In this document: in pieces, positions 3,058-23,966 of the stretch
How the letters are laid out: every line of letters begins with the position of its first letter
Position numbering within the stretch: position 1 is the stretch's first letter
Source: an uncultured Acidimicrobiales bacterium
GTDB lineage: Bacteria; Actinomycetota; Acidimicrobiia; Acidimicrobiales; SHLQ01
Direction: 5' to 3'
NCBI GenBank assembly: GCA_938038785.1
Contig: CALHTB010000013.1
Span: 1 to 64,000 of the forward strand
DNA length: 64,000 bases
Position numbers and translations under genes: made by a program
The notes under the pieces: generated by a model
What the model saw: the letters and a program-made list of their open reading frames with translations, nothing else
What the model was told of the DNA's origin: nothing
Database searches by the model: none

Positions 3058-3945
3058 CTACACGGTGCGCCAGGGTTTGGCGGTGGCTACGGCGAGAGCT
3101 CGGAGCTCGGCTACCCGGTCGCTTACCTCGCCCGCTATAACACCGGCACGGTCTTCGATGCTGGCGTCTGATGCAGGGCGCCAAATCGCCCGGCCGCCCG
3201 TGAAACCCGAGCATCCGTTGCGGAATGCCACCTCGAGTTGCGCCTTGTAGGCCTCGTAGGTGACGCCCGACGAGAGCAATACCCACGGTTGACGGCACGC
3301 CGCATCGACGGCGGCACACGCATCGTCCCAACCATCGGGGTTTGTGGGGTCGCCAGGGAACTCGAGCTTCAACACATCGATCGGCAGCGGTGAGAGCTCT
3401 TCGACGGTTTGCAGCACGATGCCAGGTCGGTCGGCGTCAGCCATGCCGAAGGCAACCGGCTCTACGAGCAGCGCAAGGTCGAGCTCGGCACAGATCACCG
3501 CGGTGTCCTCCACCACTTGGCGTTGCTGTGCTGCATGCTCGGTGCGTTCGGGCGAGTACGGCAACAGCAGCTTGGCCGCCCCGGCTCCGTGTCGCTTCAC
3601 ATCGGCGGCGTTCCAGTCGGGCATCATCTGCGTTGGGCCAGCCCACGGATCTTGCATGTAGCCCTGTGCCTCGAGAGCGGCCATGAAACCCTGGCTACCA
3701 ACAATGGCCCCGCTCTCGATTGCCTGCGGAAGGCTGTACTCAGGCTCGAGCATCACCCCACTCGCCTGAGGGCCAACGCCGCTGATCAAGGCCAACTTGA
3801 ACTCGGTGATCTCCGCGTTGGTCGCAGCGCCAGGCAACACCGCCTTGAGCGAATCGCGGTGGTCAATGGCGAGGATCGCAAACACGCCTTCGTCGGTGGT
3901 GAGGGTGTCGATGCCGCGCATCTTTCCCGGTGTCATTGCTGTCAT
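3058..3945 (-). CDS. LacD/YihT-like class I aldolase, probable DKGP aldolase (IolJ role)
   Basis: 295-residue TIM-barrel aldolase of the tagatose-bisphosphate aldolase (LacD) group. Visible motifs are AIDHRDSLK (residues 26-34), AKLLLPY (124-130), VEPV (161-164) and DVLKLEFPGD, whose Lys193 corresponds to the Schiff-base lysine of LacD. The same fold occurs as the DUF2090 domain fused to IolC in many proteobacteria, where it cleaves 2-deoxy-5-keto-gluconate-6-phosphate to DHAP and malonic semialdehyde. Standing last in this iol operon, six bases after iolB, it is the best candidate for that step; the B. subtilis type class II IolJ is absent here. The function is inferred from family and position. 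Confidence 0.7.
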   Translation of the reverse strand: MTAMTPGKMRGIDTLTTDEGVFAILAIDHRDSLKAVLPGAATNAEITEFKLALISGVGPQASGVMLEPEYSLPQAIESGAIVGSQGFMAALEAQGYMQDPWAGPTQMMPDWNAADVKRHGAGAAKLLLPYSPERTEHAAQQRQVVEDTAVICAELDLALLVEPVAFGMADADRPGIVLQTVEELSPLPIDVLKLEFPGDPTNPDGWDDACAAVDAACRQPWVLLSSGVTYEAYKAQLEVAFRNGCSGFTGGRAIWRPASDASIEDRAGVIAGEVSDRVAELRALAVATAKPWRTV

Positions 3946-3951
3946 CGTGTC

Positions 3952-4917
3952 CTAGTCGTCGGTGGGCTTGTCGCCCGAAACTTTGTATGGGTCATCGCCG
4001 GCAACGTCGGCACCAGGTGGAAGTCCTCCCGGGTTGCCGAGGTTCGGGGTTTGCATGACGGGCTGTTTCCACGCTCCCGCATCGTCGTTCTCCCACGCAT
4101 CATGAATCCACGTGTGGCCGGCATCGAAGCACGGAGGTGTTGTCCGTTCCTTGTCGACAAGCTCGCCTGCCAGGTAGTTCAGGAAGAACATGTTCGAACT
4201 CGGACATGACACCGTCGAGTGGTAGCCCTTCGGCACAAGAGCGGTGTCGCCGTCGTGCATCACCAAGGTCTCGTCGAAGTCGCCGTCGGGGGTCCAGTTG
4301 CGGTGCATGATGAAGCCGTTGCCCGGGTCCATTCGGAAGTAGTAGGTCTCTTCGAGATACGGCGAGCCGTCCTCGCCATCGTGGCGGTGAGGCGCCCAGC
4401 CAGCCCACATACCCCGTGGCACGTACACCTCGTACAGGATGAGCCGCTCGGCATCGATCGGCGGAGCAAGAACGTGGTTGACCTGGCGGTGCGACGCACC
4501 GCCGCCACGAACTTCGCTCTTCATCTCTTCGGGGACGATCAACCGAGTGGGGTAGAGCCCCTCAGCAGGAGCAGAGCCAATAGCGAACTCGAACTCGCCA
4601 TCAGCAGCGGTGATCTCGATCTCGTCGCCAGGAGTCACGTAGACGATGCTCGGCATCTGCTCGAACACACTGGTCCGGCCAACCTCGAAGGTGTGATCAC
4701 CCGCTTTAACGACACCGTTTCCGGTAAGCGGCACGATTGCCGTCTCCTGGTCGGGCCGGTGATCGGTGTGGCTGGTTCCCGCGGCCAGGTTCACCACCGA
4801 GAAACTCAGGAATCTCCATCCCGCCGATTCCGGCGTGACATCAAGACGCACCCCGTCACCACCCGAATTTTGGACAAGGCTGTTAGAGGCTGCCCGTCGA
4901 TCGCTGTTGATGTTCAT
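3952..4917 (-). CDS. iolB: 5-deoxy-glucuronate isomerase IolB
   Basis: 321-residue double-cupin isomerase that turns 5-deoxy-glucuronate, the product of IolD, into 2-deoxy-5-keto-gluconate. Family landmarks include the first cupin (NLAAGTSHTDHRPDQE), the central HRQVNHVLAP and the second cupin with SPYLEETYYFRM, GFIMHRNWTPDGDFDETLVMHDGDTALVPKGYH split around metal-binding His/Glu residues. The ATG at 4917 is preferred over an in-frame TTG at 4929 because GGGAG lies six bases before it. That ATG overlaps the stop of the upstream SDR as ATGA (4914-4917), implying translational coupling. Confidence 0.92.
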   Translation of the reverse strand: MNINSDRRAASNSLVQNSGGDGVRLDVTPESAGWRFLSFSVVNLAAGTSHTDHRPDQETAIVPLTGNGVVKAGDHTFEVGRTSVFEQMPSIVYVTPGDEIEITAADGEFEFAIGSAPAEGLYPTRLIVPEEMKSEVRGGGASHRQVNHVLAPPIDAERLILYEVYVPRGMWAGWAPHRHDGEDGSPYLEETYYFRMDPGNGFIMHRNWTPDGDFDETLVMHDGDTALVPKGYHSTVSCPSSNMFFLNYLAGELVDKERTTPPCFDAGHTWIHDAWENDDAGAWKQPVMQTPNLGNPGGLPPGADVAGDDPYKVSGDKPTDD

Positions 4918-5780
4918 GAATTCTCCCAAGGGAAGTGTCGAGGTACTGGTTCGAAAGGTGCAGCGGGGCCTTGGCCCGGCATGGTCTGGTCGAAGTCGAT
5001 AGAAGCGCCCGACATCAGGCCCGACTCATCACTGAGCATGAAGCAGATTCCGCGGGCGACTTCCTGAGGCTTGAGCAGCCGGCCATGTGGCTGCACCTTC
5101 TCGGCCTCTTCGAGCCAGTTGTCGGGGGCGTCGTGGAACTTCTTCTGCACGCCATCTTCGGCGGGGGTGTCCATCCAGCCCGGGTTAATCAGGTTGACCC
5201 TGATTTGTTCCATGCGAAGCGAGTAGCCAGCGTGGCGCACCATTGCTTCAAGGCCATGCTTGGCCACGACGTACGGGAACAGCTCGCCAATGCCACCGTG
5301 ATGGGCGATCGAGCCGACGAGCGCCATCGACCCGTGGACACCTTCGCGCTCCATGATCGTGGCGAGCCCGGTGATGAGTAGACCTGGCGCTTTCACGTTG
5401 ACAGCGAGCATCTCGTCCCACATGTCGCCGGTGGTGTTCCACACCGTGCCGCGCCATGTGGCAGCCGCGCACATGGCTGCTGCGTGGACCGTTCCGTACT
5501 TCTCATCGACGGTCGACACGACGAGCTCGGCGCCTTCGGTTGTGGCCATATCGGCGGAGAGAAAGCTGACCGAACAGCCGTCACCGTCGAGGCGCGCGGC
5601 CGAGGCGTCACCCTTGGCCTGATCGCGCCCGACGAGCAAAATCGCCCCAGCCCCTCGGGCCTTTAACAGCTCGGCCACGGCATAGCCAAGGCCTTGCGAC
5701 CCGCCAGTGACGACACAGGTCTTGCCCGCGAACGACCCGAACGAATACGGGTCAGAAGTGATCGATTGGTCGATGCTCAT
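4914..5780 (-). CDS. Short-chain dehydrogenase/reductase in the iol operon
   Basis: 288-residue classical SDR. It has the nucleotide-binding TGGSQGLG (residues 25-32), catalytic Ser157 (GSIAHHG) and the YxxxK pair Tyr170/Lys174. It is coupled at both ends by 4-base ATGA overlaps, upstream to iolG (5777-5780) and downstream to iolB. Likely acts on a hydroxyl or ketone of a cyclitol or deoxy-sugar acid, for example interconverting inositol isomers together with the Gfo/Idh/MocA enzymes. The exact substrate cannot be read from the sequence. It is not one of the standard iol genes of Bacillus. Confidence 0.75.
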   Translation of the reverse strand: MSIDQSITSDPYSFGSFAGKTCVVTGGSQGLGYAVAELLKARGAGAILLVGRDQAKGDASAARLDGDGCSVSFLSADMATTEGAELVVSTVDEKYGTVHAAAMCAAATWRGTVWNTTGDMWDEMLAVNVKAPGLLITGLATIMEREGVHGSMALVGSIAHHGGIGELFPYVVAKHGLEAMVRHAGYSLRMEQIRVNLINPGWMDTPAEDGVQKKFHDAPDNWLEEAEKVQPHGRLLKPQEVARGICFMLSDESGLMSGASIDFDQTMPGQGPAAPFEPVPRHFPWENS

Positions 5781-6778
5781 GCAGTGATCTCCGATGTCTT
5801 GACGGGGCGGCCTTCTCGATGGCTCTTCAGTGCAGCAATGCCAGCGACGAGTGGGGCTCGGCCGTCTTCGATACCGAGCAGCATGTTGCCTGTTGAGAGA
5901 CCTTCAGCGAACGCAACCCACTCGTTGGTAAAGCTCTCGGTGTAGCGCTCGATGAAGAAGTATGGGATGGGTTCGAGCTGCGTGCCTGTAGCGGTGTGCA
6001 GCTCGGTCGAGTGCGGGCGAGGGTTCTCCGAGATCGCCATACCCAACGAACCGAACGCCTCAACTCGCTGGTCGTACCCGTAAACCGCTTGACGGCTGTT
6101 GTCGATGTAGGTGAGGGTGCCATTCTCGTGCGTGAGTAGAAGCATGGCCGTGTCGATGTCACCTGCTTGGCCGATAGCCGGATCGATGCGGTTGGCGCCC
6201 TTTGCAAAGACCTCGACGATCTCGCTACCGGTGACAAACCGGGCCATGTCGAAGTCGTGGATCGTCATGTCGTTGAACATGCCGCCCGATACCTCGATGT
6301 ACTCGATCGGCGGCGGGGCCGGGTCGCGACTGGTGATCTTGACCATGTGCAGCTCGCCCAGAGCGCCGCTTGCGGCGGCCTGCTGCACCGCAGCATGGGC
6401 CGGGTCGAAGCGCCGGTTGAATCCGATCTGGATCGGGACGCGAGCAGTGTTGATCGCGGCGGCGGCCCGGTCGACTTCAGCAAGGTTCAGCGACACGGGC
6501 TTCTCGAGAAAGATCGACTTGCCCGCTTCGGCCGCAGCAACGGCGAGGTCTACGTGTGTGTCGGTGCTGGTACAGATCGCAACAGCATCAACATCGCTCG
6601 ACATAATCTCGTCGACGGTCTCGGCTCGATCACACCCGATCGCGTCGGCCACCGCCTGTGCGCTCTCCGAGTGGATGTCGTAGACAGCCACGACGTCGAG
6701 ACCATCGACGTGTTGGGTGATGATGTCTGCGTGCATCTTGCCGATGCGCCCGAGACCAAAGATGGCGATTGACGTCAT
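5777..6778 (-). CDS. iolG: Inositol 2-dehydrogenase IolG (Gfo/Idh/MocA family)
   Basis: 333-residue NAD-dependent dehydrogenase. N-terminal Rossmann fold with GLGRIGKMHAD (residues 8-17), EKPVS with Lys93, and the C-terminal substrate motif GGMFNDMTIHDFDM with Asp170 and His174, which is characteristic of myo-inositol dehydrogenases; FNRRFDP (120-126) is also an IolG hallmark. Oxidises myo-inositol to 2-keto-myo-inositol (scyllo-inosose). Starts and ends in ATGA overlaps with neighbours (6775-6778, 5777-5780). Of the three Gfo/Idh/MocA proteins in the operon this is the one closest to true IolG. Confidence 0.88.
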   Translation of the reverse strand: MTSIAIFGLGRIGKMHADIITQHVDGLDVVAVYDIHSESAQAVADAIGCDRAETVDEIMSSDVDAVAICTSTDTHVDLAVAAAEAGKSIFLEKPVSLNLAEVDRAAAAINTARVPIQIGFNRRFDPAHAAVQQAAASGALGELHMVKITSRDPAPPPIEYIEVSGGMFNDMTIHDFDMARFVTGSEIVEVFAKGANRIDPAIGQAGDIDTAMLLLTHENGTLTYIDNSRQAVYGYDQRVEAFGSLGMAISENPRPHSTELHTATGTQLEPIPYFFIERYTESFTNEWVAFAEGLSTGNMLLGIEDGRAPLVAGIAALKSHREGRPVKTSEITA

Positions 6779-7725
6779 GAAGGTTCTCCTACCTGAGCGG
6801 CGTATTGCTCTCGGAATCGTTCGATGAGGGTGCGCACGGGTGTTGCGGTTCGGCCGAGGATTCGATCCGTCCGAGGCGTCGTGAGCGAGGTGTCGTACGG
6901 GACCGGCGCGGCGAGCATCGAGGCCGGGTCGGGTGGCCCGAAATCGAGCAGGTCAGCGTCGAGGTCAAAGACGTCGCAGGTGAGCTCAGCGAGATCGCGG
7001 CGAGTAACGGCGTCAGCGCCACAGCAATGGAAGACGCCCGTGCCGTGTTTCTCGCCGATCGCAAGCATGATCTCGCCGCATTCGAGGGCAAGCGATGGCG
7101 TCGCCACCATGTTGATGTCGTCGGCTTCCCACACCGTGAACGGTTCGTTGGCCGAAAGCGAATCGACGATGCTGGCCACGAAGTAGCCAAACCCTCGGTC
7201 TTGGGCACGAGGAGTGGAGGGCCGAGCCAGGTGCTGTCCGTTGACACCGCTCACACGAGCGACCGCTCCCCCGGCTTCGAGCGCAACCATTTCTGACGCA
7301 AGTTTCAGCGTGCCGTACAGGTTGATGGGGTTCGGGGGTGTGAGTTCGTCGGCGCCGCCTTGCGTGCCGTCGAATACCCAGTCGGTCGAGACGAGCACGT
7401 AGCTGGCATCGACCCCTTCGATCGCTGCCTGGGCGGTGTGGCGCGTTGCGTTCACGTAGGCATTCCATGACGCCTGGCGGTCGGCATACATCCGGTCCCA
7501 GTCGTTCATGATTGCGCAGTGGACGACAAGGTCCGGGTCGAAGCTGTCGATGCTGGCTCGGACGTCAGCGCCGTTGGTCATGTCGACCTTCGACACGGCG
7601 TAAGCGGCATCAGGTGGCGGGACGAAGGTGTGCGCAGTCGTCAGCACATCGTGGCCACCGTCGACTGCGGCACGCACGATGTTCGACCCGACAAAGCCGC
7701 CGCCACCACTGATCCACACCCTCAT
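6775..7725 (-). CDS. RmlD-like NAD-dependent reductase/epimerase
   Basis: 316-residue extended-SDR protein resembling dTDP-4-dehydrorhamnose reductase. N-terminal GGGGFVGS, STDWVFDG at residues 113-120 (a signature of the RmlD group) and catalytic Tyr137/Lys141. No rhamnose genes lie nearby, so rhamnose synthesis is unlikely. Its position between the Rieske-desaturase and iolG, with ATGA overlaps on both sides (7722-7725 and 6775-6778), suggests reduction or dehydrogenation of a cyclitol or sugar intermediate in the same pathway. Substrate not identified. Confidence 0.7.
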   Translation of the reverse strand: MRVWISGGGGFVGSNIVRAAVDGGHDVLTTAHTFVPPPDAAYAVSKVDMTNGADVRASIDSFDPDLVVHCAIMNDWDRMYADRQASWNAYVNATRHTAQAAIEGVDASYVLVSTDWVFDGTQGGADELTPPNPINLYGTLKLASEMVALEAGGAVARVSGVNGQHLARPSTPRAQDRGFGYFVASIVDSLSANEPFTVWEADDINMVATPSLALECGEIMLAIGEKHGTGVFHCCGADAVTRRDLAELTCDVFDLDADLLDFGPPDPASMLAAPVPYDTSLTTPRTDRILGRTATPVRTLIERFREQYAAQVGEPS

Positions 7726-9158
7726 GCGTCGCCCCCGCCATTTGTGACAATTGGGGTCAGACCCCGGAGGTCAGTTTCGATGCGGGCGTTGCGCACGCGA
7801 ACGGGGTAGGTGGTGAGCGGCGTTAGGACTGGGCGGCGGGTTCCTTCACCGGTTCGCAAGTCGAAGCGCCCGTTGTGCTTTGGGCATTCGATCTCACAGC
7901 CGAGGACGGTTCCGTTCGTGAGGTCGGCGTCACCGTGAGTACACGTGCGGTCGACGAGTGCGAAGTCACCTTGTTCGGTGCACGCCAACAACAACGCGGC
8001 GCCGTTGATGTCGATGGCCTGCAGTCCACCCGGAGCGAGATCGGCTGGGCCGAGATCAACCCAACCATCGGCGTTCGGCTCTCCGGCCCACTCAAAGCCT
8101 TGAACGATCGGACCTCGCCGTCCGGGCACATCGGGGATGTGTCGAGGCAGCTCCCACGACGGATCCTTGGCCTGCTCACGAAAGGCGTGGATGATCTCCT
8201 TGTAGGCGGCGATTGTGCCTGGCATCGGCTCCGGCAGCTGATCGCGAATTTCGGCGTGAAGCTGCGGAAGGTTGTAGTACGGCACCGCGGGGAACATGTG
8301 GTGCTCGACGTGGTAGTTCATGTTCAGATACAGAAACCGAAAGATCGGGTTCATCAACACGGTCCGCGTCGAGTACCGGTGGTCGAGTTGATCCTCTCGC
8401 AGACCCGCATGTTGGGTGACGCCAAAGAACAGCACCAGCCACGCTCCATAGAACGTGGGCCCCCCGATGAGCAATAGCGGGTAGACCGAGCGGCTCAGAA
8501 TCGCCCACACCACCGTGGCCAGCCAGATCGCCACATAGATGCGCGCTTCGGTGAAGACACGATGACGCTCGCTTTCGGGCACGAGCACGTCGATGTTGTC
8601 GTCAGACTTGCCCAACGCATGCTTGACGGTGGTGCGCATCATCGAGGTGCCACCCTCGATGTGGGTGAACATCCAAGCCAGCTTTGCGATCGACGGCGGG
8701 CGAGGAAAGACGATCTCGGCATCTCGTCCGACGATGATCGTGTCGGTGTGATGGCGGAAGTGAGACCAGCGCCAGTAGGTCGCCTCACGTGCGAGCATGA
8801 AGCTCGCTGGGTAGTACACCAAGTCGTTCAACCACTGCGTTCGAAACGCCGTGCCGTGCCCGCACTCGTGCCAGCGAGCGTCCGTTGAACCACCGACCAA
8901 CATGCCGTACGCGAAGAAGCCGGGGACTGCCCACCAACTGCCTCGCTGACTCCATGCAAAGACCCCCGACGCCACGATGAGGGCTACCCAGATGGCCAAG
9001 TCGATTCCCGGCCGGGAGTTTTGACGAACGCTCAGCTCGCGCAGCCGCACCGGGTCGATGTCAGCCTGGAACCATTGCGCGTTTGCCAGCCCGCGCTCCT
9101 CGGCCCGCGAAGACTCGACGCCGGTAAGGCTGTAGTCACGGCGGGCCACGGACGTCAT
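7722..9158 (-). CDS. Fused fatty-acid-desaturase-type oxygenase with C-terminal Rieske domain
   Basis: 478-residue fusion. Residues 1-330 are a membrane di-iron oxygenase of the FA_desaturase family: His boxes HECGH (97-101), HFRHH (133-137) and HVEHH (283-287), with hydrophobic segments around 55-90 and 205-250. Residues 365-460 are a Rieske [2Fe-2S] domain with C406-T-H408 and C425-P-K-H428, so the electron carrier is built in. Such enzymes hydroxylate or desaturate unactivated carbons. ATGA overlaps connect it with the dehydrogenase before it and the RmlD-like gene after it, so it is made with the inositol enzymes. A methyl-ether or cyclitol hydroxylation is possible but unproven. The last codons lie within a dispersed palindrome (7745-7773). 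Confidence 0.78.
   Translation of the reverse strand: MTSVARRDYSLTGVESSRAEERGLANAQWFQADIDPVRLRELSVRQNSRPGIDLAIWVALIVASGVFAWSQRGSWWAVPGFFAYGMLVGGSTDARWHECGHGTAFRTQWLNDLVYYPASFMLAREATYWRWSHFRHHTDTIIVGRDAEIVFPRPPSIAKLAWMFTHIEGGTSMMRTTVKHALGKSDDNIDVLVPESERHRVFTEARIYVAIWLATVVWAILSRSVYPLLLIGGPTFYGAWLVLFFGVTQHAGLREDQLDHRYSTRTVLMNPIFRFLYLNMNYHVEHHMFPAVPYYNLPQLHAEIRDQLPEPMPGTIAAYKEIIHAFREQAKDPSWELPRHIPDVPGRRGPIVQGFEWAGEPNADGWVDLGPADLAPGGLQAIDINGAALLLACTEQGDFALVDRTCTHGDADLTNGTVLGCEIECPKHNGRFDLRTGEGTRRPVLTPLTTYPVRVRNARIETDLRGLTPIVTNGGGDA
7745..7773. repeat. Family C palindrome inside a coding end
   Basis: The pattern is TGAC, four bases, GGGGTC-A-GACCCC, four bases, GTCA. The identical architecture recurs at 49104-49132, and related partial copies lie at 25676-25695 and 63872-63890. 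Here it encodes the residues around GLTPI near the C terminus of the desaturase-Rieske protein. Confidence 0.75.
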
Positions 9159-10123
9159 GGCAGGTACAACTCGGGAGTCTCAAACGACGCAACCTCGACC
9201 GACCCACCATTGGCGATCGATGTCAGCGCGGCCTCGGCCACTAGCTGTGCAGCGAGGCCGTCCACCGCCGATGGTCCAATTGCTGCCGGCGCATCGAGCG
9301 ACTCGACCCACTGCCGATCTTGAATGCGGTATGCGTCTGCGAACCAGCCGAACCAATCATCACCGATCGGGGTGCGGTAGTCGCCGTCGATACGAAGGCG
9401 GGGCCGCTGCGGGGCGCTGGTCATGGCCATCCCGTTTAGGCCGGTCACTTCGACCTCGACGTCGTAGGCATAGCTGTCATCACTGAACTCAACCGTGGCG
9501 GTGGCGCCGGATTCGAGCCGCAGGACGAGCAGAACGTGCATGAGTCCTCCTGGACGCGGAACGGCGCGAGCGTCGACGTCGACGACCTTGCCCCCAAGCC
9601 AGTGCACCGTATGAATGTCGTGGATCAACGACTGTACGAGGACTGTGGCAGGCGGTCGGGCTTCGGCGTTGGTATTGCGGTGTGTGCACCGCAAATAGTG
9701 GAGCTCACCAAGGGCCGGAAGTTGCTCGGCCAACATCGAGTGCGCGGGATCGACCTCCCGCATGAACCCAACCTGCACCCGTCGAGAGCCAAGCTCAAGC
9801 TCCTTGTCGATGACCGCCCGAGCGCCATCGAGATCATGGCTCAGTGGCTTCTCACACAGGACTCGACTTCCTGCATCGAGCGCCAGAAGCGTCAGGTCGG
9901 CATGGGTGTCATCGGGGGATGCAATTACCACGCCATCCCATCCAGCAGCGGCGCAACCCTCGACGTCTACGGTGATGTCAACCCCGTTGGCTTTGTGCGC
10001 GTCGAGATCTGGGTGCGGAAACGGGTCGGCGATCGCGGCAAGCTCGACACCGGGAAGAGCGGCGAGCGTGTCGGCGTGGAACCGGCCCATGCCACCGGCC
10101 CCGATGACAGCCAGCTTCTTCAT
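9155..10123 (-). CDS. Gfo/Idh/MocA family dehydrogenase (second in operon)
   Basis: 322-residue NAD(P)-dependent oxidoreductase. The ATG at 10123 begins MKKLAVIGAGGMGRFHAD, the Rossmann motif, and follows GGGGAATGAG; the longer frame overlaps iolD and is rejected. EKPLSHD supplies the catalytic Lys, and SLIHDIHTVHWLGG the substrate-side Asp/His pair. It resembles inositol/scyllo-inositol dehydrogenases in a general way but lacks the exact IolG C-terminal motif. It follows iolD by 31 bases and overlaps the oxygenase gene as ATGA (9155-9158). Probable role is oxidation of another inositol isomer or of the oxygenase product. Confidence 0.78.
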   Translation of the reverse strand: MKKLAVIGAGGMGRFHADTLAALPGVELAAIADPFPHPDLDAHKANGVDITVDVEGCAAAGWDGVVIASPDDTHADLTLLALDAGSRVLCEKPLSHDLDGARAVIDKELELGSRRVQVGFMREVDPAHSMLAEQLPALGELHYLRCTHRNTNAEARPPATVLVQSLIHDIHTVHWLGGKVVDVDARAVPRPGGLMHVLLVLRLESGATATVEFSDDSYAYDVEVEVTGLNGMAMTSAPQRPRLRIDGDYRTPIGDDWFGWFADAYRIQDRQWVESLDAPAAIGPSAVDGLAAQLVAEAALTSIANGGSVEVASFETPELYLP

Positions 10124-10154
10124 CTCATTCCCCAAAACTGCGAAGCAAACAGGG

Positions 10155-12014
10155 TCATGTGATTCGCTGCGCCTTCTTGCCCTCGACCATGTCGGCCTTG
10201 GCCTCGAGCACCGAGTCGAGGTCGCTGACCTCGGGCACTCCGACTTCCCAGAACGAACCGCCCTCGGTCCAGCTGTATGCATCGGTCACCAACGCGATGA
10301 CATAGGTGCGATCGGCGTCTTTCGCTCGGGCATATGCAGCCTCGAGCTCGTCGATGCTGGTGACCGTTTCAGACAGCGCGCCTTGGGCTTCGGCGTGCTT
10401 GGCGAAATCGACCGGCACCGGGTTCACAACGGTTGGGTTGTCCTTGATCAGGTTGTTGAACGGGTTGCCGCCCATTCCCGTTTGCAGTCGGTTGATCACC
10501 GCGAACCCGCCGTTGTCGCACACGATGACGATCATCTTGTGGCCGTGAATGACCGAGCTGTAGATGTCGCTGTTGAGCATCATGTACGAACCGTCGCCGG
10601 TGAACACGACGACGTCTTTGTCGGGCATTGCCATCGCCGCGCCCCACCCGCCGGCGGTCTCGTACCCCATGCAGCTGTAGCCGTACTCGCAGTCAAAGCT
10701 GTTGAGGTGCTTGGCCCGCCAGCCGTTGTTGACCTCGCCGGGGAACCCACCAGCTGCGGCGAGCGCAAAGGTGTTCTCATCAGCAAGCCGATCGATGGCG
10801 CCAACGACCTGGGCGTATGTCGGCAGGCCTGTGTCGCCGGTTGCATCCTTTGCAGCGATCTTGTCGATGTAGGCGTTGTGTTGGGCGATCTCGGTCGAGA
10901 GCGTCGTGCTCCATTCGTCGGGCGCACGGTAATCACCAAGGCCGAGCGTCATTTCTGCCAACGTCACCTTCGCATCGCCGACGAGCGGTACCGACTGACG
11001 CTTCGTTGCGTCGAAGCGAGCGGTGTTGAGCTGGATGATCCTGACCGCATCGTTCTTGAAGACGGTCCATGAGCCGGTGGTGAAGTCGAGCAACCGGGTG
11101 CCAACGGCGAGGACCACATCGGCCTCCCCAGCGAGTGCGTTCGCCGACGTACCACCGGTAACCCCGATCGGGCCGCCATACATCGGGTGGTCCCATTGCA
11201 TGCACGCCTTGCCGGCAACGGTCTCGACGACCGGGATGTTGTGGGCCGTCGCGAACGCGGCAAGCTCGGGCTCGGCGAGGCTGTAGTGCACTCCCCCGCC
11301 AGCGACGATCAGCGGCTTCTTGGCCGAGCTCAGCAACGAGATCGCCTCGTCGAGCTGACGCTTGTCGGCCCGAGGGCGCGCTATGTCGTGCACCGTCTCG
11401 GCAAAGAAGCTCGTTGGGAAGTCCCACGCTTCAGCACCAACGTCTTGGGGCAGGCCAATGAATGCTGGCCCGCAATCGCCGGGGTCGAGCATCGTGTGAA
11501 TCGCATGCGGCAGGGAGCTGGTGAGCTGCTCGGGACGCACGATCCGGTCCCAATATCGAGTGACCGCACGGAAGCTGTCGTTGACGGTTTGGGTGGGGTC
11601 GTTGAAGTGTTCGACCTGCTGCAGCACAGGGTCGGGGATGCGGCTGGTGAACGTGTCACCGGCAATCAGCAAAAGCGGTATGCGGTTGCTGTGGGCAACA
11701 CCTGCCGCAGTGACCATGTTGGTTGCACCAGGGCCAACCGAGCTCGTGGCGACCATGATCTGTCGCCGCCGGGTCGCCTTAGCGTAGGCCACTCCAGCTA
11801 GGGCCATCCCTTCCTCGGTCTGACCGCGGAAGGTTGGCAGGGCCTCCTTCTGACGCTCGAGCGCGTGACCAAGCGACGTCACATTGCCGTGTCCGAAGAT
11901 GCCATAGACACCACCAAACAGCGGGGCGACCGAGCCATCACGTTGCACAGACTTCTGTGCAATCAAGTACTTCACAATCGCCTGTGAGGTGGTCAAACGA
12001 ACAGTGTCAGTCAT
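10155..12014 (-). CDS. iolD: 3D-(3,5/4)-trihydroxycyclohexane-1,2-dione hydrolase IolD
   Basis: 619-residue thiamine-diphosphate enzyme that opens the ring of trihydroxycyclohexanedione to give 5-deoxy-glucuronate. Visible family features: N-terminal FGGVYGIFGHGNV, FRGQTEEGMA with the cofactor-activating Glu, the SSVGPGATNM block, and the C-terminal TPP motif beginning FTGDGSYMMLNSDIYS and continuing to DNGGFAVINRLQ. Length is normal for IolD. AAGGAG lies eight bases before the ATG at 12014. About 200 bases without a gene precede it, so it may head its own sub-operon that runs to the aldolase. Confidence 0.93.
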   Translation of the reverse strand: MTDTVRLTTSQAIVKYLIAQKSVQRDGSVAPLFGGVYGIFGHGNVTSLGHALERQKEALPTFRGQTEEGMALAGVAYAKATRRRQIMVATSSVGPGATNMVTAAGVAHSNRIPLLLIAGDTFTSRIPDPVLQQVEHFNDPTQTVNDSFRAVTRYWDRIVRPEQLTSSLPHAIHTMLDPGDCGPAFIGLPQDVGAEAWDFPTSFFAETVHDIARPRADKRQLDEAISLLSSAKKPLIVAGGGVHYSLAEPELAAFATAHNIPVVETVAGKACMQWDHPMYGGPIGVTGGTSANALAGEADVVLAVGTRLLDFTTGSWTVFKNDAVRIIQLNTARFDATKRQSVPLVGDAKVTLAEMTLGLGDYRAPDEWSTTLSTEIAQHNAYIDKIAAKDATGDTGLPTYAQVVGAIDRLADENTFALAAAGGFPGEVNNGWRAKHLNSFDCEYGYSCMGYETAGGWGAAMAMPDKDVVVFTGDGSYMMLNSDIYSSVIHGHKMIVIVCDNGGFAVINRLQTGMGGNPFNNLIKDNPTVVNPVPVDFAKHAEAQGALSETVTSIDELEAAYARAKDADRTYVIALVTDAYSWTEGGSFWEVGVPEVSDLDSVLEAKADMVEGKKAQRIT

Positions 12015-13388: not shown

Positions 13389-13399
13389 TGCGTTATTCC

Positions 13400-14317: not shown

Positions 14318-14331
14318 CGTGCCACCAAAGA

Positions 14332-14436
14332 TTTGTACACAGAAACTGACCGCATAGGTATGAAACCGTGTACAAAAACTGACCGCGGAGATTTGTACAC
14401 AGAAACTGACCGTATGGGTATGAAACCGTGTACAAA
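14332..14436. repeat. Family A palindromic repeat, tandem pair
   Basis: Two 45-base units (14332-14376, 14392-14436) with an exact 60-base period. Each starts TTTGTACACAGAAAC and ends GAAACCGTGTACAAA, with an ACCGYATRGGTA-like core. The pair ends two bases from the iolC stop codon. Related units occur at 23059-23104 and 61310-61415. Confidence 0.9.
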
Positions 14437-14438
14437 TC

Positions 14439-15395: not shown

Positions 15396-15424
15396 GGTGT
15401 ATCTCCGAGCGCGCTGGCGCTAGG

Positions 15425-16231: not shown

Positions 16232-18330
16232 CGGGACTCCTCCGCTTTGGTCTTGATGAAGTTGTTGGCAATCACCGCGGTCAGCAAAATGATTCCGAGG
16301 AAGGCGAAGCGCCAGTCCGAGTTCCATCGGGCTGACGGAATGCCCTGCTTGGTCATGGCTACGATCACCGCACCAATCGCCGCTCCAAACGCTGAGCCGT
16401 AGCCGCCGGTGAGCAACGTCCCGCCAACAACCGCTGCGATGATGTACTCGAACTCGAGTCCGTTACCCGCAACCGACTGCACGGTGTCGAGACGGAAGGC
16501 GAGTAGCAAGCCCACCAGCCATGCAGCAACTGACACGATCATGAACAGCTGAGTCTTGGTACGTGCGGCGGGCACGCCTACCTGTCGGGCGGCTTGCTTG
16601 TTGCCGCCAACAGCAAAGATCCACGACCCGAACTTCGTCCGGCCGAGCAGCCAGGTGGCGAACAGCGAGAAGCCGATGAACCACAGGATGCTGATACGGA
16701 AGCCAGCTCGAGGAATGTTGGCGTCAAGTTCGGCCTGAGTAGTGAACAGCAATTTCACGATGAGGCCGATCGCCATTGCGGTTCCGCCGACCTTCGCCAT
16801 CTGCGTGCCGAGGTTGTCGGCAGTGGCTTCCTGGAATCGACGCTGGGTGAACAACGTCGAACAGACGGCCCATACAAAGATGACGAGGGCGGTTGCCAGC
16901 AAGACCGAGAACAACTCGGAACGGAACTTGACCGATGCTGACTGGCTTCGGATGAAGAAAGCGAGGGCAACAAGGATCGCCGAGAACACCGTCAACACCA
17001 CGCCGCGTGTAGCCGGAGTGTTTCGTCCAGCCTTGTTGGCCGCGATAGCGAGAGCGAGCAGGCCCGCAAGCAACGTGACGCCAAAGAGGATCGCGCGTAG
17101 GCCCTGTTCGGTGGCCATGAACATGAAGGCGTAGACCGAGAAGGAGGAGGCGGCTGCGATGCTGGCCACGTTGACGAACGTCTGCGACTGGGTATTGCTG
17201 TCGTTGGCGCTCTTCTTGAACGCCTTGTAACCAGCAAATGCGCCGGCACCGATGACGAAGGGCCAACGAAGAGCACCGACCAGATCGAGGACTGGCTCTT
17301 GGGAGTCGACGTCGAACACGACGGCGAAGACCATGGCGAGCACCGAGGCGCCAACGCCAGCTCCGAGCAACATCGAAACCGAGCCGTCGAGCTTGACGCC
17401 GCCTGGCGATTGACGCTCGTAACGCCACATGCAAAAGCCGACAAAGGCGGCCAGGCCAGCAACACCGATGATGACTGCCGCGATGGTGTTGGCGGACACG
17501 CCATCGGAGTTGTGCATGTACAGAATGCCTGCGACGACTCCGGCAATACCGGCCCCGAAGATCGGTATACCACCGGCGTTGAGCTTGTCACGGTGGGTAA
17601 AGTTGAGCTCGGCGACCGCTAAGGCGATAAGCGCGAGACCGCCGAGGATGCCGATGGTGTAGATGGCATCGCGGGATTCGAACTGATGCTCATTGCGAAT
17701 CCAGACCGTGGCAAACACCGGTTCCCAAAATTCGTGACCGCGGCCCTGAGCTTCGCTGATGCGACCAACGGTGAGGTTGTCGATGATCAGCTTCGAGAAA
17801 CCGAGTTTGAAGCCACGCAATATGAAGAACGTGGCCAAGGTGACAATGAAGCTGGGCAACCCCGTTCTCTCCACCATCGTGCCGTTGATCCAGCCAAGTG
17901 CTAGTGCAAACAGCAGTGAGAGCGGGATGGCGACCCACAGGGTCAGTCCGGCGCCACCGAGGTCGCCGACATCTTTCACCAGAAGAATGGTGATGATGGC
18001 AAAGGTGCCGGTGGCGGCACCCGAAGAAAGGTCAAATTCGCCGCCGATCATCAACAGCGAAACTGCTACGGCCATAATGCCGAGCGTTGCGGACACGTCG
18101 AGGATCGACGACATGCCGCCTGCGGTTCCGAATTCCCGCGAAACCGCCCAGAAGAACGCCCAGATGGCGGCGGCGCCCACGATCGAGCCGATCTCGGGGC
18201 GTACGAACAAGCGCTGGAACACACCTCGATAGGCAAGGCGCTCATCGACACCAGCAAGTGTTGCGGCCATCGCGTCAGCTGCTGCACTTGCGTCGCTGTT
18301 ACCCACCTGTGGGACGGCAGTGTCAGACAT
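16228..18330 (-). CDS. Oversized CUT2-type ABC transporter permease with central membrane insertion
   Basis: 700-residue membrane protein, about twice the usual 320-400 of RbsC/XylH permeases. The first about 190 residues (with [14 protein letters not shown]) and the last about 140 ([37 protein letters not shown]) match the two halves of the BPD_transp_2 family. Between them, roughly residues 200-555, lie about nine extra hydrophobic segments, with polar loops such as [20 protein letters not shown] lies just before the ATG at 18330. Forms the inner-membrane channel with the ATPase that follows and the binding lipoprotein that precedes. Confidence 0.85.
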
Positions 18331-18369
18331 TTCGTTTCTCTCCCCCTACGGACATACACACAAACGAAC

Positions 18370-18397
18370 GGGGGCCGGCCCACTGGGCACGGCCCCC
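18370..18397 (-). terminator. Hairpin between binding-protein and permease genes
   Basis: GGGGGCCG (18370-18377) pairs with CGGCCCCC (18390-18397), with an inner GCCC/GGGC stem. There is no strong T-run, so it may be an attenuator or an mRNA-stabilising stem that favours the binding-protein message over the permease, a common arrangement in ABC operons. Confidence 0.55.
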
Positions 18398-18431
18398 AAA
18401 CGTCATTTCAACAAGTTGCTACTCCGAAGAG

Positions 18432-19439: not shown

Positions 19440-19511
19440 ATTTCCCCTCCTGATTGGGCTTTCTTTGTTGTTCTCGAGGTCCGACTATCGACCCACAAAC
19501 TGACCATGAGG

Positions 19512-20423
19512 TCAGGCAGCGAGCCGAGCTTCGAGCTCTCGGAGATAGTTGACGTTCTGCTGAACGTCTTCGATTGGTCCCTTACCTGGCAACGGTTCGG
19601 CGCCTGTGATTGCTGTGTCCTGTTCGAGGACATACCAGCCGTCATACCCGCTGCTTTCTAGCGAACCTATTACACGATCGATGTCGAGGTCACCTCGCCC
19701 CACGTTTGGGAACAGCCCGTTCTGGACTGCCTCCATAAGTGTGAGCTCGCCATCGTTGAGTTGTTTTGCGATCGAGAGGGTGCAGTCCTTGATGTGCACG
19801 AGGCCCACGCGATCGGCGTGATTGTCGACAAAGTCGACCGGGTCGTACCCGCCGACGGCGAAGTGTGCGGTGTCGAGCACGAAGCGAATTCCCGAGTTGT
19901 CGACCGTTCGCTGGATCTCATCTTTGGTCTCGATGATGGTGCCGACATGTTCGTGGAGTACCTGGGTAAGCCCGTGAGCTTCGGTGATCTCTTCGATGCG
20001 GTCGAACATAATCCAGGTGTGGTCCCACTCGGCGTTGCTGAGTTCGCGACGCGGCGCCCAGTCCCAGGTGGTGACCGGTGAGCTGTTGAAGTAGGTCGCG
20101 CCAGTGGCCTGGAGGAGCTTGGCCATGTCTTCGCACCGGCGCAGCGTTTCGGCCGCCTCGGCCGGGTCGTGAACGAGCACCGGAACGAACGCGGCCAGCA
20201 GGTCGAGGTTGTATTCGCCGAGAACGGAGTTCAGCTCGGCGGGGTCGGAAGGGAGATACCCCTCCGAGCCAAGCTCCGTTGCTGGAAAACCCATCTGCGC
20301 CATCTCGGAGAGAACTCGATCAACAGGCAGTTGGACACCCCAGCCAGGCACTTCACAGATTCCCCAAGAAATGGGAGCTGTAGCCATGCGATTCATGAAA
20401 CTCATGTGCGTGTGCAACCTCAT
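19512..20423 (-). CDS. iolE: IolE-like inosose dehydratase (sugar phosphate isomerase/epimerase family)
   Basis: TIM-barrel protein of about 303 residues. The start APISWGICEVPGWG and the metal-site blocks LHEHVGTIIET, FVLDTAHFAVGG, VGLVHIKDC and WYVLEQDT (Glu/Asp/His ligands) match 2-keto-myo-inositol dehydratase (IolE) and its IolI relatives. It dehydrates inosose to the trihydroxycyclohexanedione used by IolD. Four in-frame ATGs lie at 20423, 20405, 20396 and 20387, none with a good ribosome site. 20423 is chosen because TAGATAT lies seven bases before it, the spacing of a leaderless transcript; this is uncertain. First gene of the minus-strand operon, downstream of a LacI operator. Confidence 0.8.
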   Translation of the reverse strand: MRLHTHMSFMNRMATAPISWGICEVPGWGVQLPVDRVLSEMAQMGFPATELGSEGYLPSDPAELNSVLGEYNLDLLAAFVPVLVHDPAEAAETLRRCEDMAKLLQATGATYFNSSPVTTWDWAPRRELSNAEWDHTWIMFDRIEEITEAHGLTQVLHEHVGTIIETKDEIQRTVDNSGIRFVLDTAHFAVGGYDPVDFVDNHADRVGLVHIKDCTLSIAKQLNDGELTLMEAVQNGLFPNVGRGDLDIDRVIGSLESSGYDGWYVLEQDTAITGAEPLPGKGPIEDVQQNVNYLRELEARLAA

Positions 20424-20464
20424 TGCGTCATATCTAGCGTCTACTTTGTGACCGAGCGGAGCGA

Positions 20465-20480
20465 AGTAGAGCGCTCTACT
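20465..20480. promoter_or_regulatory. Probable LacI operator 1 (iol side)
   Basis: Perfect 16-base palindrome AGTAGAGCGCTCTACT with the central CG typical of LacI-family operators. It lies about 42 bases upstream of the chosen iolE start, in the divergent region shared with the lacI gene. Confidence 0.8.
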
Positions 20481-20656
20481 CGGTGACGGTCGCCACAACG
20501 TAGTCAATGAGGACAGACTTCGTCAACTCATCCCGCCAAGAATTCTTTGGAGCGGTCGACAATGACTACAACGAGAAAAGGGGGTGGAAGAGGGCTTACA
20601 CCTTGATTTTGTTGGAATCTGGATTCCATGTCCATAGGTTACCGCTCAGTAAAAAG

Positions 20657-20668
20657 TAGAGCGCTCTA
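20657..20668. promoter_or_regulatory. Probable LacI operator 2 (lacI side)
   Basis: Second copy of the palindrome: TAGAGCGCTCTA perfect, with the preceding AAAGTAGAG matching operator 1. It overlaps a TATACA -10-like box (20667-20672) and lies about 35 bases before the lacI start, which fits autoregulation. Confidence 0.8.
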
Positions 20669-20703
20669 TACATCTTCCATTTGTTTCGCTATGGTGCCAG
20701 GCC

Positions 20704-21696
20704 ATGGGCCAGCCAACAATGGACGATGTCGCTGCACACGCCGGGGTGTCGCGCGCCCTCGTGTCTCTGGTCATGCGCGATTCACCTCGAGTCGCCGAGA
20801 AAAGCCGCACCAAGGTGCTGGCATCGGCCGCCGAGCTTGGTTACCGCCCAAACGCGTGGGCTCGAAATCTTGCATCGGGGCAGACCAACACCATCGGCGT
20901 CATGCTGAATGACCTGCACAACCCGTACTTCACCGAGCTCGCCGAAGGTGTTGCCGAAGCAGCCGACGAGTCCGGCATGAAGGTCCTTATCACCTCGGGC
21001 TGGCAACGCGAGTCCGGCGAGCACGCAGCCATCGAGACGCTGCTCAACCTACGGACCGACGGCATCGTCCTTGGCGCAGCGCGATTCTCGGGCGAGGTGT
21101 TTGAAGAGGTCGCCGACCAAGCGCCAACGGTCGCCGTGGCTAACTTTGGCCTACCCGACTCCATGGACACGGTCTGCAACCACGAGTCGCATGGGTCCGA
21201 ACTTGTCGTCGAACACCTGGTGTCGCTAGGCCACTCGCGCATTGCCCACATCGACGCAGGAAATGCTCCAGGCGCACCCGAACGCCGCCGCGGGTTCATG
21301 ACCGCGATGACCGATAGAGGCCTCGCCCCAATCGTCTTCGACGGTGACTTCCATGAGAACGCTGGCTTTCGGGCCGCCGAAAGTCTGATGAAGCTGAACG
21401 AGCCACCAACCGCCATCTTCGCGGCGAACGACCTCTCGGCAACCGGCGTACTTGCACATCTGCGCAGCATCGGTGCCAGCGTGCCCGAAGACGTTTCGGT
21501 AGTTGGATACGACGACACCGTGCTCGCCGGCCTCGGCGCCCTCTCACTCACGACGATCCACCAGCCCAGACAACTCTTCGGTCGACGGGCAACCGAACTG
21601 CTCCTCGAACGAATCGATGGACGAACCGCTGCCAAACACGAGCTCATCGAGCCACACCTCGTCGTCCGCTCGACAACCGGACCAGTGACACCGTAA
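20704..21696 (+). CDS. LacI-family transcriptional regulator of the cyclitol cluster
   Basis: 330-residue repressor-type protein. The helix-turn-helix begins at residue 5 (MDDVAAHAGVSRALVSLVMR), followed by the hinge GYRPNAWARNLASG and a periplasmic-binding-like sensor domain (IGVMLNDLHNPYF, AIFAANDLSATG, VVGYDDT). It is transcribed divergently from the iol operon, and two identical palindromes flank the divergent promoters, so it probably represses both directions until an inositol-type ligand binds. xylA follows 27 bases downstream. The target set is inferred, not shown. Confidence 0.88.
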   Translation: MGQPTMDDVAAHAGVSRALVSLVMRDSPRVAEKSRTKVLASAAELGYRPNAWARNLASGQTNTIGVMLNDLHNPYFTELAEGVAEAADESGMKVLITSGWQRESGEHAAIETLLNLRTDGIVLGAARFSGEVFEEVADQAPTVAVANFGLPDSMDTVCNHESHGSELVVEHLVSLGHSRIAHIDAGNAPGAPERRRGFMTAMTDRGLAPIVFDGDFHENAGFRAAESLMKLNEPPTAIFAANDLSATGVLAHLRSIGASVPEDVSVVGYDDTVLAGLGALSLTTIHQPRQLFGRRATELLLERIDGRTAAKHELIEPHLVVRSTTGPVTP

Positions 21697-21723
21697 CTAC
21701 TCGCCCGACAACGAAAGCCAGCC

Positions 21724-23055
21724 ATGACCGACTTCTTCACCGACATCACCGAACCAGTCGCCTACGAAGGCCCAGACACAGACAACCCCTTTGCCTTCCG
21801 GTGGTACGACAAAGACCGGGTTGTACTCGGGAAGACCATGGAAGAGCAGCTTCGCATGGCGGTCTGTTATTGGCACAGCTTTGCGTGGGTTGGCGCCGAC
21901 ATCTTCGGCACTGGAACCTTTGATCGTCCGTGGTTCAACCCGTCGATGGATCCAATGGACGCCGCCCGGCTCAAGATGGACGCGGCGTTCGAGTTCTTTC
22001 ACAAGCTCGGCGTCCCGTTTTGGAGTTTCCACGACCGCGACATTGCACCGGAAGGCGAGACGTTCGCCGAGAGCTGTGCGAACTTCGACACCATGGTTGA
22101 CTACGCCGAGGCCAAGATGGCCACCACCGGCACGAAGGTGCTTTGGGGAACCGCGCAGGCGTTTGTGAACCCTCGCTACGCCGCAGGCGCGTCGACCAAC
22201 CCAAACCCCGATGTGTTTGCTCACGCCGCGGCACAGGTGAAGCACTGCATCGACGCCACGCATCGCTTGGGCGGTTCAAACTATGTGCTCTGGGGTGGGC
22301 GCGAGGGCTACGAGATGTTACTCAACACCAACATGGCTCAAGAGCTCGATCAGCTTGGCCGCTTCCTGCACATGGTCGTCGACTACAAGAAACAGATTGG
22401 CTTCGAGGGCACGATCCTCATCGAGCCAAAGCCTCAGGAACCCACGAAACACCAGTACGACTACGACTCGGCCACGGTGTACGGCTTCCTGCAGAACTAC
22501 GGCCTTGAGAACGACATCAAGGTCAACATTGAGGTGAACCACGCCACGCTGTCGGGCCACGACTTCAACCACGAAGTCAAGCAGGCAGTGACCAACGGCA
22601 TCTTCGGTTCGGTCGATGCCAACCGTGGCGATGATCGCCTTGGCTGGGACACCGACCAGTTTCCAAACTCGGTCGAGCAGATGAGCCTCGGCGTCTACGA
22701 GATTCTTCTCGGAGGCGGCTTTGACACCGGCGGCTTCATGTTCGACACCAAGCTTCGACGTCAGAGCATGCACCCCAACGACCTGTTCCATGGCCACGTC
22801 GGTGCAATGGACACCATGGCCCGGAGCCTCCTCGTCGCAGCCGCGCTCATCGAAGACGGCGAGATTGCATCGCTCGTCGAAGAACGGTACTCGGGCTGGG
22901 GAACCGACCGAGGGCAAAAGATCCTCGCCGGCGAGGTCGGCCTAGCCGAGCTGCACGCAGACGTATTGGCCAACAACATCGACCCAACTCCGGTCAGCGG
23001 CCAACAAGAAATGATCGAGAACATCGTCAACCGCACGATCGAACGAGTTCGCTAG
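21724..23055 (+). CDS. xylA: Xylose isomerase
   Basis: 443-residue aldose-ketose isomerase, full length for the group II XylA. Catalytic and metal residues are visible: SFHDRDI with His103 and Asp106, [23 protein letters not shown] with the bridging Glu, [10 protein letters not shown], and GSVDANRGD. Converts D-xylose to D-xylulose, or related aldoses. It sits directly after the LacI gene and before the PhyH dioxygenase. No xylulokinase is in the window. Either the cluster also handles xylose or the enzyme isomerises a sugar made in the cyclitol route. A family A repeat begins three bases after its stop. Confidence 0.9.
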
Positions 23056-23058
23056 AGA

Positions 23059-23104
23059 TTTGTACACCGTTTCGAACCGTATAGGTATGAAAACCGTGTA
23101 CAAA
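23059..23104. repeat. Family A palindromic repeat, single unit
   Basis: A 46-base unit beginning TTTGTACACCGTTTC, with a CCGTATAGGTA core and ending CCGTGTACAAA. It starts three bases after the xylA stop codon and ends 19 bases before the next start. Confidence 0.88.
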
Positions 23105-23123
23105 AACATTATGAGGGGGTCTT

Positions 23124-23966
23124 GTGTATGAAGTAGACGTCGACACGATCGACGACAACATTGAAACGATCATCGATGAGCTCCTTACGGGCGATGGCGC
23201 GGTCGCCATTCGAGGCGCGTTCGATGCATCGCAGGTAGCCGAAGCGCGCGAACTGCTCATGGAGTACTCCAAGGACGAGGACAAGGAGACGCACTTCCAG
23301 GGAGCAAACGCCGACATAATGCACCTGCAGCGGCGGGTCTGGAACTTGCTTGCTAAGGGCAAGATCTTCGAGGACATGGTGCAGCAACCCGACGTTGTGA
23401 AGATCACGTCAGCGTTCCTCGGCAATCAGTTTCACCTTGGTTCGATCGCTGCGAACCGGCTGCTTCCTGGCGGCCCTGGCCAAGAGCCGCACATCGACTA
23501 TCCGTACTGGGACATGTATGACCGTGAGGGGTTTCCCGCTCGCATTAATTCGAGCTACCCCCTCAACCTGCAGGTCACCATTCCCCTCGATCCGTTCAAC
23601 GAGGTCTCCGGTGCGAGTGGCTTCATGCCAGGCTCACAGGTAAATCTGAACTATCCCGAGAAGGAAGATCGCGAAGGATTCTTCGCCAACTGCGGGCGCA
23701 TGTCGGGCGACCCTGGTGACGCGATCTTGTTCAACGGCATGGTGTGGCACTGCGCCATGCCCAATGAGAGCGACCACGACCGCACGGCAGTGCTCATCGA
23801 GTACTTGCCCAAGTTCGTGATCCCGCTCGAAGACCAGTTATCGGGCGTGCCCCAAGATGTTGTGGACCGAGGCACCCCACTGTTCCACCGGTTGATCGGA
23901 ATCGGCAGGCCATACCCCAAGCTCTTCGACGAAGCCGACGGCAAGAACACCATCGGGAGAGACTGA
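23124..23966 (+). CDS. Phytanoyl-CoA dioxygenase (PhyH) family Fe(II)/2-oxoglutarate oxygenase
   Basis: 280-residue jelly-roll oxygenase. The iron triad is visible as His123 and Asp125 (PHIDYPYWD) with distal His209 (MVWHCAMPN), and Arg220 (DRTAV) would bind 2-oxoglutarate. The GTG at 23124 is the start because GGGGG lies five bases before it; the nearby ATG at 23128 is out of frame. PhyH enzymes hydroxylate aliphatic carbons of small molecules and can remove O-methyl groups by hydroxylation. Co-directional with lacI and xylA, so probably part of the cyclitol regulon. Substrate unknown. Confidence 0.82.
   Translation: MYEVDVDTIDDNIETIIDELLTGDGAVAIRGAFDASQVAEARELLMEYSKDEDKETHFQGANADIMHLQRRVWNLLAKGKIFEDMVQQPDVVKITSAFLGNQFHLGSIAANRLLPGGPGQEPHIDYPYWDMYDREGFPARINSSYPLNLQVTIPLDPFNEVSGASGFMPGSQVNLNYPEKEDREGFFANCGRMSGDPGDAILFNGMVWHCAMPNESDHDRTAVLIEYLPKFVIPLEDQLSGVPQDVVDRGTPLFHRLIGIGRPYPKLFDEADGKNTIGRD

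What the first reader, a model, noticed from the sequence alone, without database searches (positions are those of the whole stretch)
3058..23966. Cyclitol catabolic island with two oxygenases built into an inositol operon
The sequence shows IolE, IolC, IolD, IolG, IolB and a LacD-like aldolase, enough for myo-inositol to DHAP and malonic semialdehyde, plus a dedicated ABC importer. It also shows a fused desaturase-Rieske oxygenase, a PhyH dioxygenase, two more Gfo/Idh/MocA dehydrogenases, an RmlD-like reductase, an SDR, a 2-hydroxyacid dehydrogenase and xylose isomerase. Standard iol clusters have none of the oxygenases. Inference: the real substrate may be an O-methyl or otherwise substituted inositol (pinitol, ononitol and the like) that the oxygenases first demethylate or hydroxylate.
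Basis: partly seen in the sequence, partly recalled or inferred. Interest (0 to 1): 0.8.

Follow-up and report, generated by a model that had tools for sequence, protein, structure and literature searches.

The report
MocD-MocE oxygenase fusion in inositol operon
An uncultured actinobacterium carries an inositol-degrading operon into which a fused oxygenase has been slotted, related to one that rhizobia use to break down a methylated inositol derivative, so the operon can probably also handle methylated inositols.

Summary
The gene content is real. Window 3058-20507(-) reads as one inositol (iol) operon with an ABC importer; a LacI-type regulator, XylA and a PhyH dioxygenase diverge from it (20704-23966). 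MocDE is a removable cassette: three relatives have the same operon without it. PhyH is a separate module, found also without MocDE. A palindromic operator, found in 15 of 18 LacI/IolE intergenic regions examined, suggests one regulon. Some MocDE loci in Actinomycetota and Alphaproteobacteria hold a divergent PanB-like (C1-transfer) gene, which fits formaldehyde release; the window does not. It is not a canonical moc locus: no MocR, no MocF in the cluster, SBP below the model's cut-off. Demethylation and substrate are unproven; O-methyl-inositol is favoured over rhizopine. New variant of a known kind.

The parts
3058..3945 (-). LacD/IolJ-type aldolase, last gene of operon
   Evidence: Pfam DeoC; NF009498 191.2 bits over cut-off 184
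3022..3053 (-). terminator-like hairpin directly after the aldolase gene
   Evidence: 13-pair stem, the longest of 11 terminator-like sites; the number of such sites does not exceed shuffles (11 vs 14.1)
3952..4929 (-). IolB, 5-deoxy-glucuronate isomerase
   Evidence: TIGR04378 224.6 bits over cut-off 205
4914..5780 (-). SDR dehydrogenase
   Evidence: NF004847 290 bits over cut-off 240
5777..6778 (-). IolG, inositol 2-dehydrogenase
   Evidence: TIGR04380 398.6 bits over cut-off 355
6775..7725 (-). RmlD-like NAD-dependent reductase/epimerase
   Evidence: Pfam PF04321
7722..9158 (-). MocD-MocE fusion: desaturase-type oxygenase (res. 74-310) + Rieske ferredoxin (res. 371-452)
   Evidence: Pfam; co-linear with adjacent MocD|MocE genes; invariant His boxes in 49 aligned sequences; tree
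9155..10282 (-). Gfo/Idh/MocA dehydrogenase 2 (likely start near 10123)
   Evidence: Pfam; relatives; start inferred
10155..12014 (-). IolD, trihydroxycyclohexane-1,2-dione hydrolase
   Evidence: TIGR04377 820.2 bits over cut-off 715
12216..13388 (-). Gfo/Idh/MocA dehydrogenase 3, levoglucosan-dehydrogenase-like
   Evidence: NF052479 296.7 bits, below cut-off 650
13400..14629 (-). D-2-hydroxyacid dehydrogenase (likely start near 14320)
   Evidence: Pfam PF02826/PF00389; start inferred
14439..15395 (-). IolC, 5-dehydro-2-deoxygluconokinase
   Evidence: TIGR04382 340.7 bits over cut-off 300
15425..16327 (-). ABC importer ATPase, single domain (likely start near 16231)
   Evidence: Pfam PF00005; start inferred
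16228..18330 (-). ABC importer permease, 700 aa, two BPD_transp_2 stretches
   Evidence: Pfam PF02653
18432..19439 (-). solute-binding protein, nearest to the rhizopine SBP model
19512..20507 (-). IolE/MocC-type TIM barrel (likely start near 20396)
   Evidence: TIGR04379 164 bits, below cut-off 290; start inferred
20465..20480 (.). putative operator 1, perfect 16-bp palindrome
   Evidence: core conserved in relatives
20655..20670 (.). putative operator 2, same 12-bp palindromic core
20704..21696 (+). LacI-family regulator
   Evidence: Pfam LacI + Peripla_BP_3
21724..23055 (+). XylA, the only one found in the genome (73% complete)
   Evidence: TIGR02630 657 bits over cut-off
23124..23966 (+). 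PhyH-family Fe(II)/2-oxoglutarate dioxygenase, His/Asp/His/Arg kept
   Evidence: Pfam PF05721; alignment A3 of 19 sequences

Best explanation
A LacI-controlled operon of an Acidimicrobiales bacterium imports a cyclitol by an ABC transporter and degrades it by the iol pathway. Its MocD-MocE fusion is a membrane, presumably diiron, monooxygenase with its own tethered Rieske ferredoxin. Fed by a ferredoxin reductase encoded elsewhere (candidate on contig C71), it hydroxylates the methyl of an O-methylated inositol or inosose; the hemiacetal collapses to formaldehyde plus the free cyclitol, which IolG or a sister dehydrogenase oxidises and IolE-D-B-C and the LacD-type aldolase cut to DHAP and malonic semialdehyde. 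MocDE is an optional cassette that extends an inositol operon to methylated inositols. Shown here: gene content, homology, synteny, cassette presence/absence, a conserved palindrome pair. Inferred: regulation, O-demethylation, substrate, order of steps, reductase partner. The confidence is for O-demethylation of an O-methyl cyclitol, amino or not; rival 1 is the amino part of it.
Confidence: 0.66

Rival explanations
1. It is a true rhizopine system: the substrate is 3-O-methyl-scyllo-inosamine, demethylated by MocDE, deaminated with the help of a MocA-like Gfo dehydrogenase and passed to the iol pathway (the amino case of the best explanation).
For: SBP scores 188.7 bits on the rhizopine SBP model, far above the SBPs of two rhizobial LacI-mocDEF clusters (39.6 and 36.0). 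MocDE homology. Extra Gfo/Idh/MocA enzymes.
Against: Model cut-off 420 not reached; LacI instead of a MocR-type regulator, and no aminotransferase or other nitrogen gene among the operon's Pfam hits. S. meliloti 1021 carries LacI-mocDEF (NC_003078, 94.9% identity over 93% of the query) yet is reported not to degrade rhizopine (PMC8343143, passage; it may simply lack mocABC). A relative with the iol-MocDE block is L068, Ilumatobacter isolate FRAM18, which I take from its name to be marine and so unlikely to meet nodule compounds.
Confidence: 0.13
2. MocDE hydroxylates or desaturates a non-methylated cyclitol (deoxy-inositol such as quercitol, C-methyl-inositol) or another alicyclic compound rather than demethylating an ether.
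For: Desaturase-type enzymes catalyse several oxidations (family knowledge). MocDE relatives occur outside iol clusters. A second oxygenase, PhyH, in the same divergent pair suggests that other modified substrates are handled.
Against: PanB-like and PurU genes near some relatives point to a C1 product.
Confidence: 0.15
3. The oxygenases are bystanders: a plain myo-inositol operon with unrelated genes that happen to sit in it.
For: Iol operons in genomes with neither a MocDE nor a PhyH hit exist in the order, e.g. G014 and G234.
Against: MocDE overlaps both neighbours by 4 bp, and the arrangement recurs in other families of the order (G051, G253, and loci among L043-L069).
Confidence: 0.06

Closest known systems
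mocDEF of the rhizopine catabolism locus (Sinorhizobium meliloti L5-30, Rhizobium leguminosarum)
   Same: MocD-type oxygenase and MocE-type Rieske ferredoxin; dependence of rhizopine use on iol enzymes reported (PMC5789663 passage; title of Galbraith 1998 in a reference list)
   Different: D and E fused; reductase not in cluster; LacI-family regulator instead of MocR; built into the iol operon; SBP below rhizopine model cut-off; host an actinobacterium. The authentic L5-30 proteins were not compared directly.
LacI-mocDEF clusters of rhizobia (fixV-type regulator, PMC3538637 passage; L030-L034)
   Same: LacI-family gene divergent from mocDE; IolE-like TIM barrel, SBP/ABC and IolG nearby in L030 and L034
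   Different: separate D, E, F genes; SBPs of L030 and L034 of another subfamily (39.6 and 36.0 vs 188.7 bits); in the tree they lie apart from the actinobacterial fusions
myo-inositol (iol) catabolic gene clusters
   Same: IolG, E, D, B, C and aldolase, sugar/inositol-type ABC importer
   Different: MocDE, PhyH, RmlD-like, LGDH-like and hydroxyacid dehydrogenase additions; the survey PMC9430895 has no 'moc' or 'Rieske' in its main text (term search)
AlkB-AlkG (alkane monooxygenase fused to its electron carrier, PDB 8f6t)
   Different: carrier here is a Rieske ferredoxin; 14% identity; Z in a range that may only reflect a common arrangement; polar substrate presumed

Membership tests
rhizopine catabolism (moc) locus | MocD + MocE homologues | tested here: met
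   co-linear tblastn with adjacent MocD|MocE-type genes; as a fusion
rhizopine catabolism (moc) locus | MocE ferredoxin model TIGR02377 at cut-off | tested here: not met
   58.8 bits vs cut-off 136.15
rhizopine catabolism (moc) locus | MocF reductase in the cluster | tested here: not met
   no reductase among operon Pfam hits; best candidate on contig C71, 38% to L030 MocF
rhizopine catabolism (moc) locus | MocB at NF052284 cut-off | tested here: not met
   188.7 bits vs 420
rhizopine catabolism (moc) locus | MocR-type regulator | tested here: not met
   regulator is LacI family
rhizopine catabolism (moc) locus | orthologues of MocA and MocC | not tested
   Gfo/Idh/MocA and IolE-like proteins are present, but authentic MocA and MocC were not at hand for comparison
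rhizopine catabolism (moc) locus | growth on rhizopine | not testable with these tools
   uncultured genome
myo-inositol iol pathway | IolG, IolD, IolB, IolC over NCBIfam cut-offs | tested here: met
myo-inositol iol pathway | IolE over cut-off | tested here: not met
   164 vs 290 bits; AP_endonuc_2 TIM barrel by Pfam
myo-inositol iol pathway | malonic semialdehyde dehydrogenase IolA | tested here: met
   TIGR01722 693 bits vs cut-off 448.5 on contig C83, unlinked
desaturase-type diiron oxygenase | three histidine boxes | tested here: met
   H97/H101, H133/H136/H137, H283/H286/H287 and further His invariant in 49 aligned sequences; box motif itself recalled; iron content not testable
catalytic Rieske (ring-hydroxylating type) oxygenase | mononuclear iron catalytic domain behind the Rieske domain | tested here: not met
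   Rieske domain ends the protein and no such Pfam domain is hit; best matches are ferredoxins
PhyH Fe(II)/2OG dioxygenase | HxD...H...R residues | tested here: met
   H123, D125, H209, R220 invariant in 19 sequences; motif recalled

The most novel reading that the evidence does not exclude
A widespread, largely unrecognised family of O-demethylases for O-methylated cyclitols: desaturase-type enzymes fused to a Rieske ferredoxin (and in Verrucomicrobiota/Acidobacteriota also to a reductase), plugged as a cassette into actinobacterial inositol operons and, in some members of two phyla, partnered with a dedicated PanB-like enzyme that captures the released formaldehyde as a C1 unit.
Probability: 0.4. 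Interest if true: 0.75.

Novelty: new variant of a known kind. Interest (0 to 1): 0.6.

Why it matters
O-methylated inositols are common plant products (family knowledge; quebrachitol as photosynthate in PMC5889025, of which I saw the listing and the start of the abstract). My searches of an open-access library showed no described bacterial demethylation route for them in the rows listed (8 of 9 papers, 20 of 140, 12 of 81), which is no proof of absence. If this reading holds, the oxygenase complex known from rhizobial rhizopine catabolism is one branch of a broad enzyme family, and presence or absence of a single cassette in otherwise similar operons makes its function directly testable. The PanB-like neighbour would be a new way to deal with formaldehyde.
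Full report
What is there. The minus strand from 20507 to 3058 encodes IolE, a solute-binding protein, permease, ATPase, IolC, a D-2-hydroxyacid dehydrogenase, an LGDH-like Gfo dehydrogenase, IolD, a second Gfo dehydrogenase, the desaturase-Rieske fusion, an RmlD-like reductase, IolG, an SDR, IolB and a LacD-type aldolase. Gaps are at most 201 bp; perm/ATPase, Gfo2/fusion, fusion/RmlD, RmlD/IolG and IolG/SDR overlap by 4 bp each (the starts of IolE, ATPase, hydroxyacid dehydrogenase and Gfo2 used there are my inference). A terminator-like hairpin with a 13-pair stem follows the aldolase gene (terminator-like sites as a class are no more common than in shuffles, 11 against 14.1). LacI, XylA and PhyH run the other way.

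Host and spread. The nearest named relatives are uncultured Acidimicrobiales; G010, G001 and G002 (same genus) have contigs of the same lengths as CALLAA010000048, SHLQ01000013 and CAJQNJ010000006. In the genus 8 of the 11 genomes examined, the own one included, have MocDE at E up to 1e-20; in the whole set of 59 relatives it is 11. My count: 23 of those 80 loci have iol and ABC or Gfo genes around MocDE; two loci with only weak single matches (L046, L060) were left out of that count. ORFs of about 670-830 aa in Verrucomicrobiota, Acidobacteriota and others suggest a third fused part; the one tested, L109, has FA_desaturase, Rieske and a FAD/NAD reductase. In a tree of 96 MocD domains the actinobacterial rows, all of fusion length except one cut by a contig end, form one group of 46 (100/100), and the iol label, assigned by me, is clustered (8 changes against 26.4 shuffled, 0 of 500; near-copies favour this).

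Linkage in the order. Of 298 Acidimicrobiales genomes, 41 have MocDE (E up to 1e-40), 18 have PhyH (1e-30) and 54 have IolD (1e-100). MocDE and IolD share 28 genomes, PhyH and IolD 17 (p 5e-15 and 4e-13, kinship not corrected). 21 of 44 MocDE matches lie within 20 kb of IolD; the other 23 do not, or sit on other contigs. 12 of 19 PhyH matches lie within 13 kb of IolD. Of the 7 other PhyH matches, 5 (G005, G007, G016, G018, G264) sit beside LacI and/or IolE and SBP; G204 and the second G003 copy do not.

Cassette. In G004 (same genus) and G013, G016 (same family) the Gfo2 and RmlD alignments end 28, 11 and 29 bp apart with no MocDE between. G004 and G013 have none in the genome at the threshold used (93% and 90% complete); G016 has one elsewhere, without iol genes. 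All three genomes keep PhyH. Thus MocDE behaves as an add-on and PhyH belongs to the LacI side. The SBP of G004 is sister to that of cassette-bearing G005, so the importer seems not to depend on the cassette.

Regulation. The LacI-IolE intergenic region holds AGTAGAGCGCTCTACT (20465-20480) and a second copy of its core (20655-20670). Two sites in the window at up to 3 mismatches, 0.12 expected, reached by 1 of 100 shuffles; two in the whole genome at up to 2 mismatches, none for the reversed control pattern (genome 73% complete). The core GAGCGCTC is present in 15 of 18 intergenic regions examined, window included, twice in 11 of the 15; it is missing in G001, G154 and G264, where my annotation shows no LacI next to IolE (in G002 the site is present though my script listed no LacI gene). 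This is the best evidence that LacI-XylA-PhyH and the iol-MocDE operon are one regulon; binding is not shown.

C1 chemistry. Clustering of neighbours found a PanB-family gene in 9 of 80 MocDE loci (L037, L038, L039, L058, L077, L086, L103, L111, L115), and it follows mocDEF in L031 and L032. L058 and L031 score far below the panB cut-offs. L037 and L031, the two rows printed, are 48-83% identical to the other moc-linked copies and 30-34% to the housekeeping PanB of the window's genome. PurU follows mocDEF in L034, and a class III alcohol dehydrogenase-like gene (291.9 bits on the mycothiol formaldehyde dehydrogenase model, below its cut-off of 512.9) follows the unlinked MocDE of G016. These fit a C1 product of MocDE. 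Against: the window's operon and most of the 80 loci have no such PanB gene, and the window's genome shows one PanB only.

Verdict. Real, conserved, and best explained by a known kind of chemistry in a new setting; a new variant of the mocDEF/iol theme. The demethylase reading is likely but not shown.

Noticed in passing
L037, L038, L039, L058, L077, L086, L103, L111, L115 (and L031, L032): A divergent PanB (ketopantoate hydroxymethyltransferase) subfamily sits with MocDE in some Actinomycetota and Alphaproteobacteria; possible formaldehyde sink.
   Followed up: partly
L109 and other Verrucomicrobiota/Acidobacteriota loci among L071-L116: ORFs of about 670-830 aa: MocD, MocE and a FAD/NAD reductase in one chain (domains shown for L109 only).
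   Followed up: partly
L075, L079, L090, L097, L100, L101, L105, L106: A family of about 300 aa that recurs close to MocDE; the L100 member, the one scanned, has no Pfam match at 0.001.
   Followed up: no
L061, L106; PMC5132102: XylA-type genes also lie near MocDE in L061 (63% to window XylA) and L106 (30%), and P. syringae xylA2 is reported immediately downstream of mocDEF (passage); the reason is unclear.
   Followed up: no
16228-18330: The permease is 700 aa with its BPD_transp_2 matches in two stretches, and the ATPase has only one ABC domain: an odd importer layout.
   Followed up: no
SBP 18432-19439, permease 16228-18330 and relatives: SBP and permease diverge unevenly in the genus (85-88% and 75% identity to G010/G001, about 50-65% to other congeners) while IolD stays at 83-90%; the SBP tree does not show a clear exchange.
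   Followed up: partly
L038, L039, L040, and G003:C28:21696-22790 (L021): A second IolB-like gene (35-37% to IolB) lies between IolC and the hydroxyacid dehydrogenase in several relatives.
   Followed up: no
20613-20628 and L125 8051-8072: Other palindromes near the operators; the 22-bp one in G013 resembles a catabolite-response element (by recall).
   Followed up: no
G261:C1:389252-390298, G289:C42:5337-6374: MocDE matches with one in-frame TGA, possibly decayed copies.
   Followed up: no
45228-47784: GlnII and type I glutamine synthetase genes side by side, diverging.
   Followed up: no
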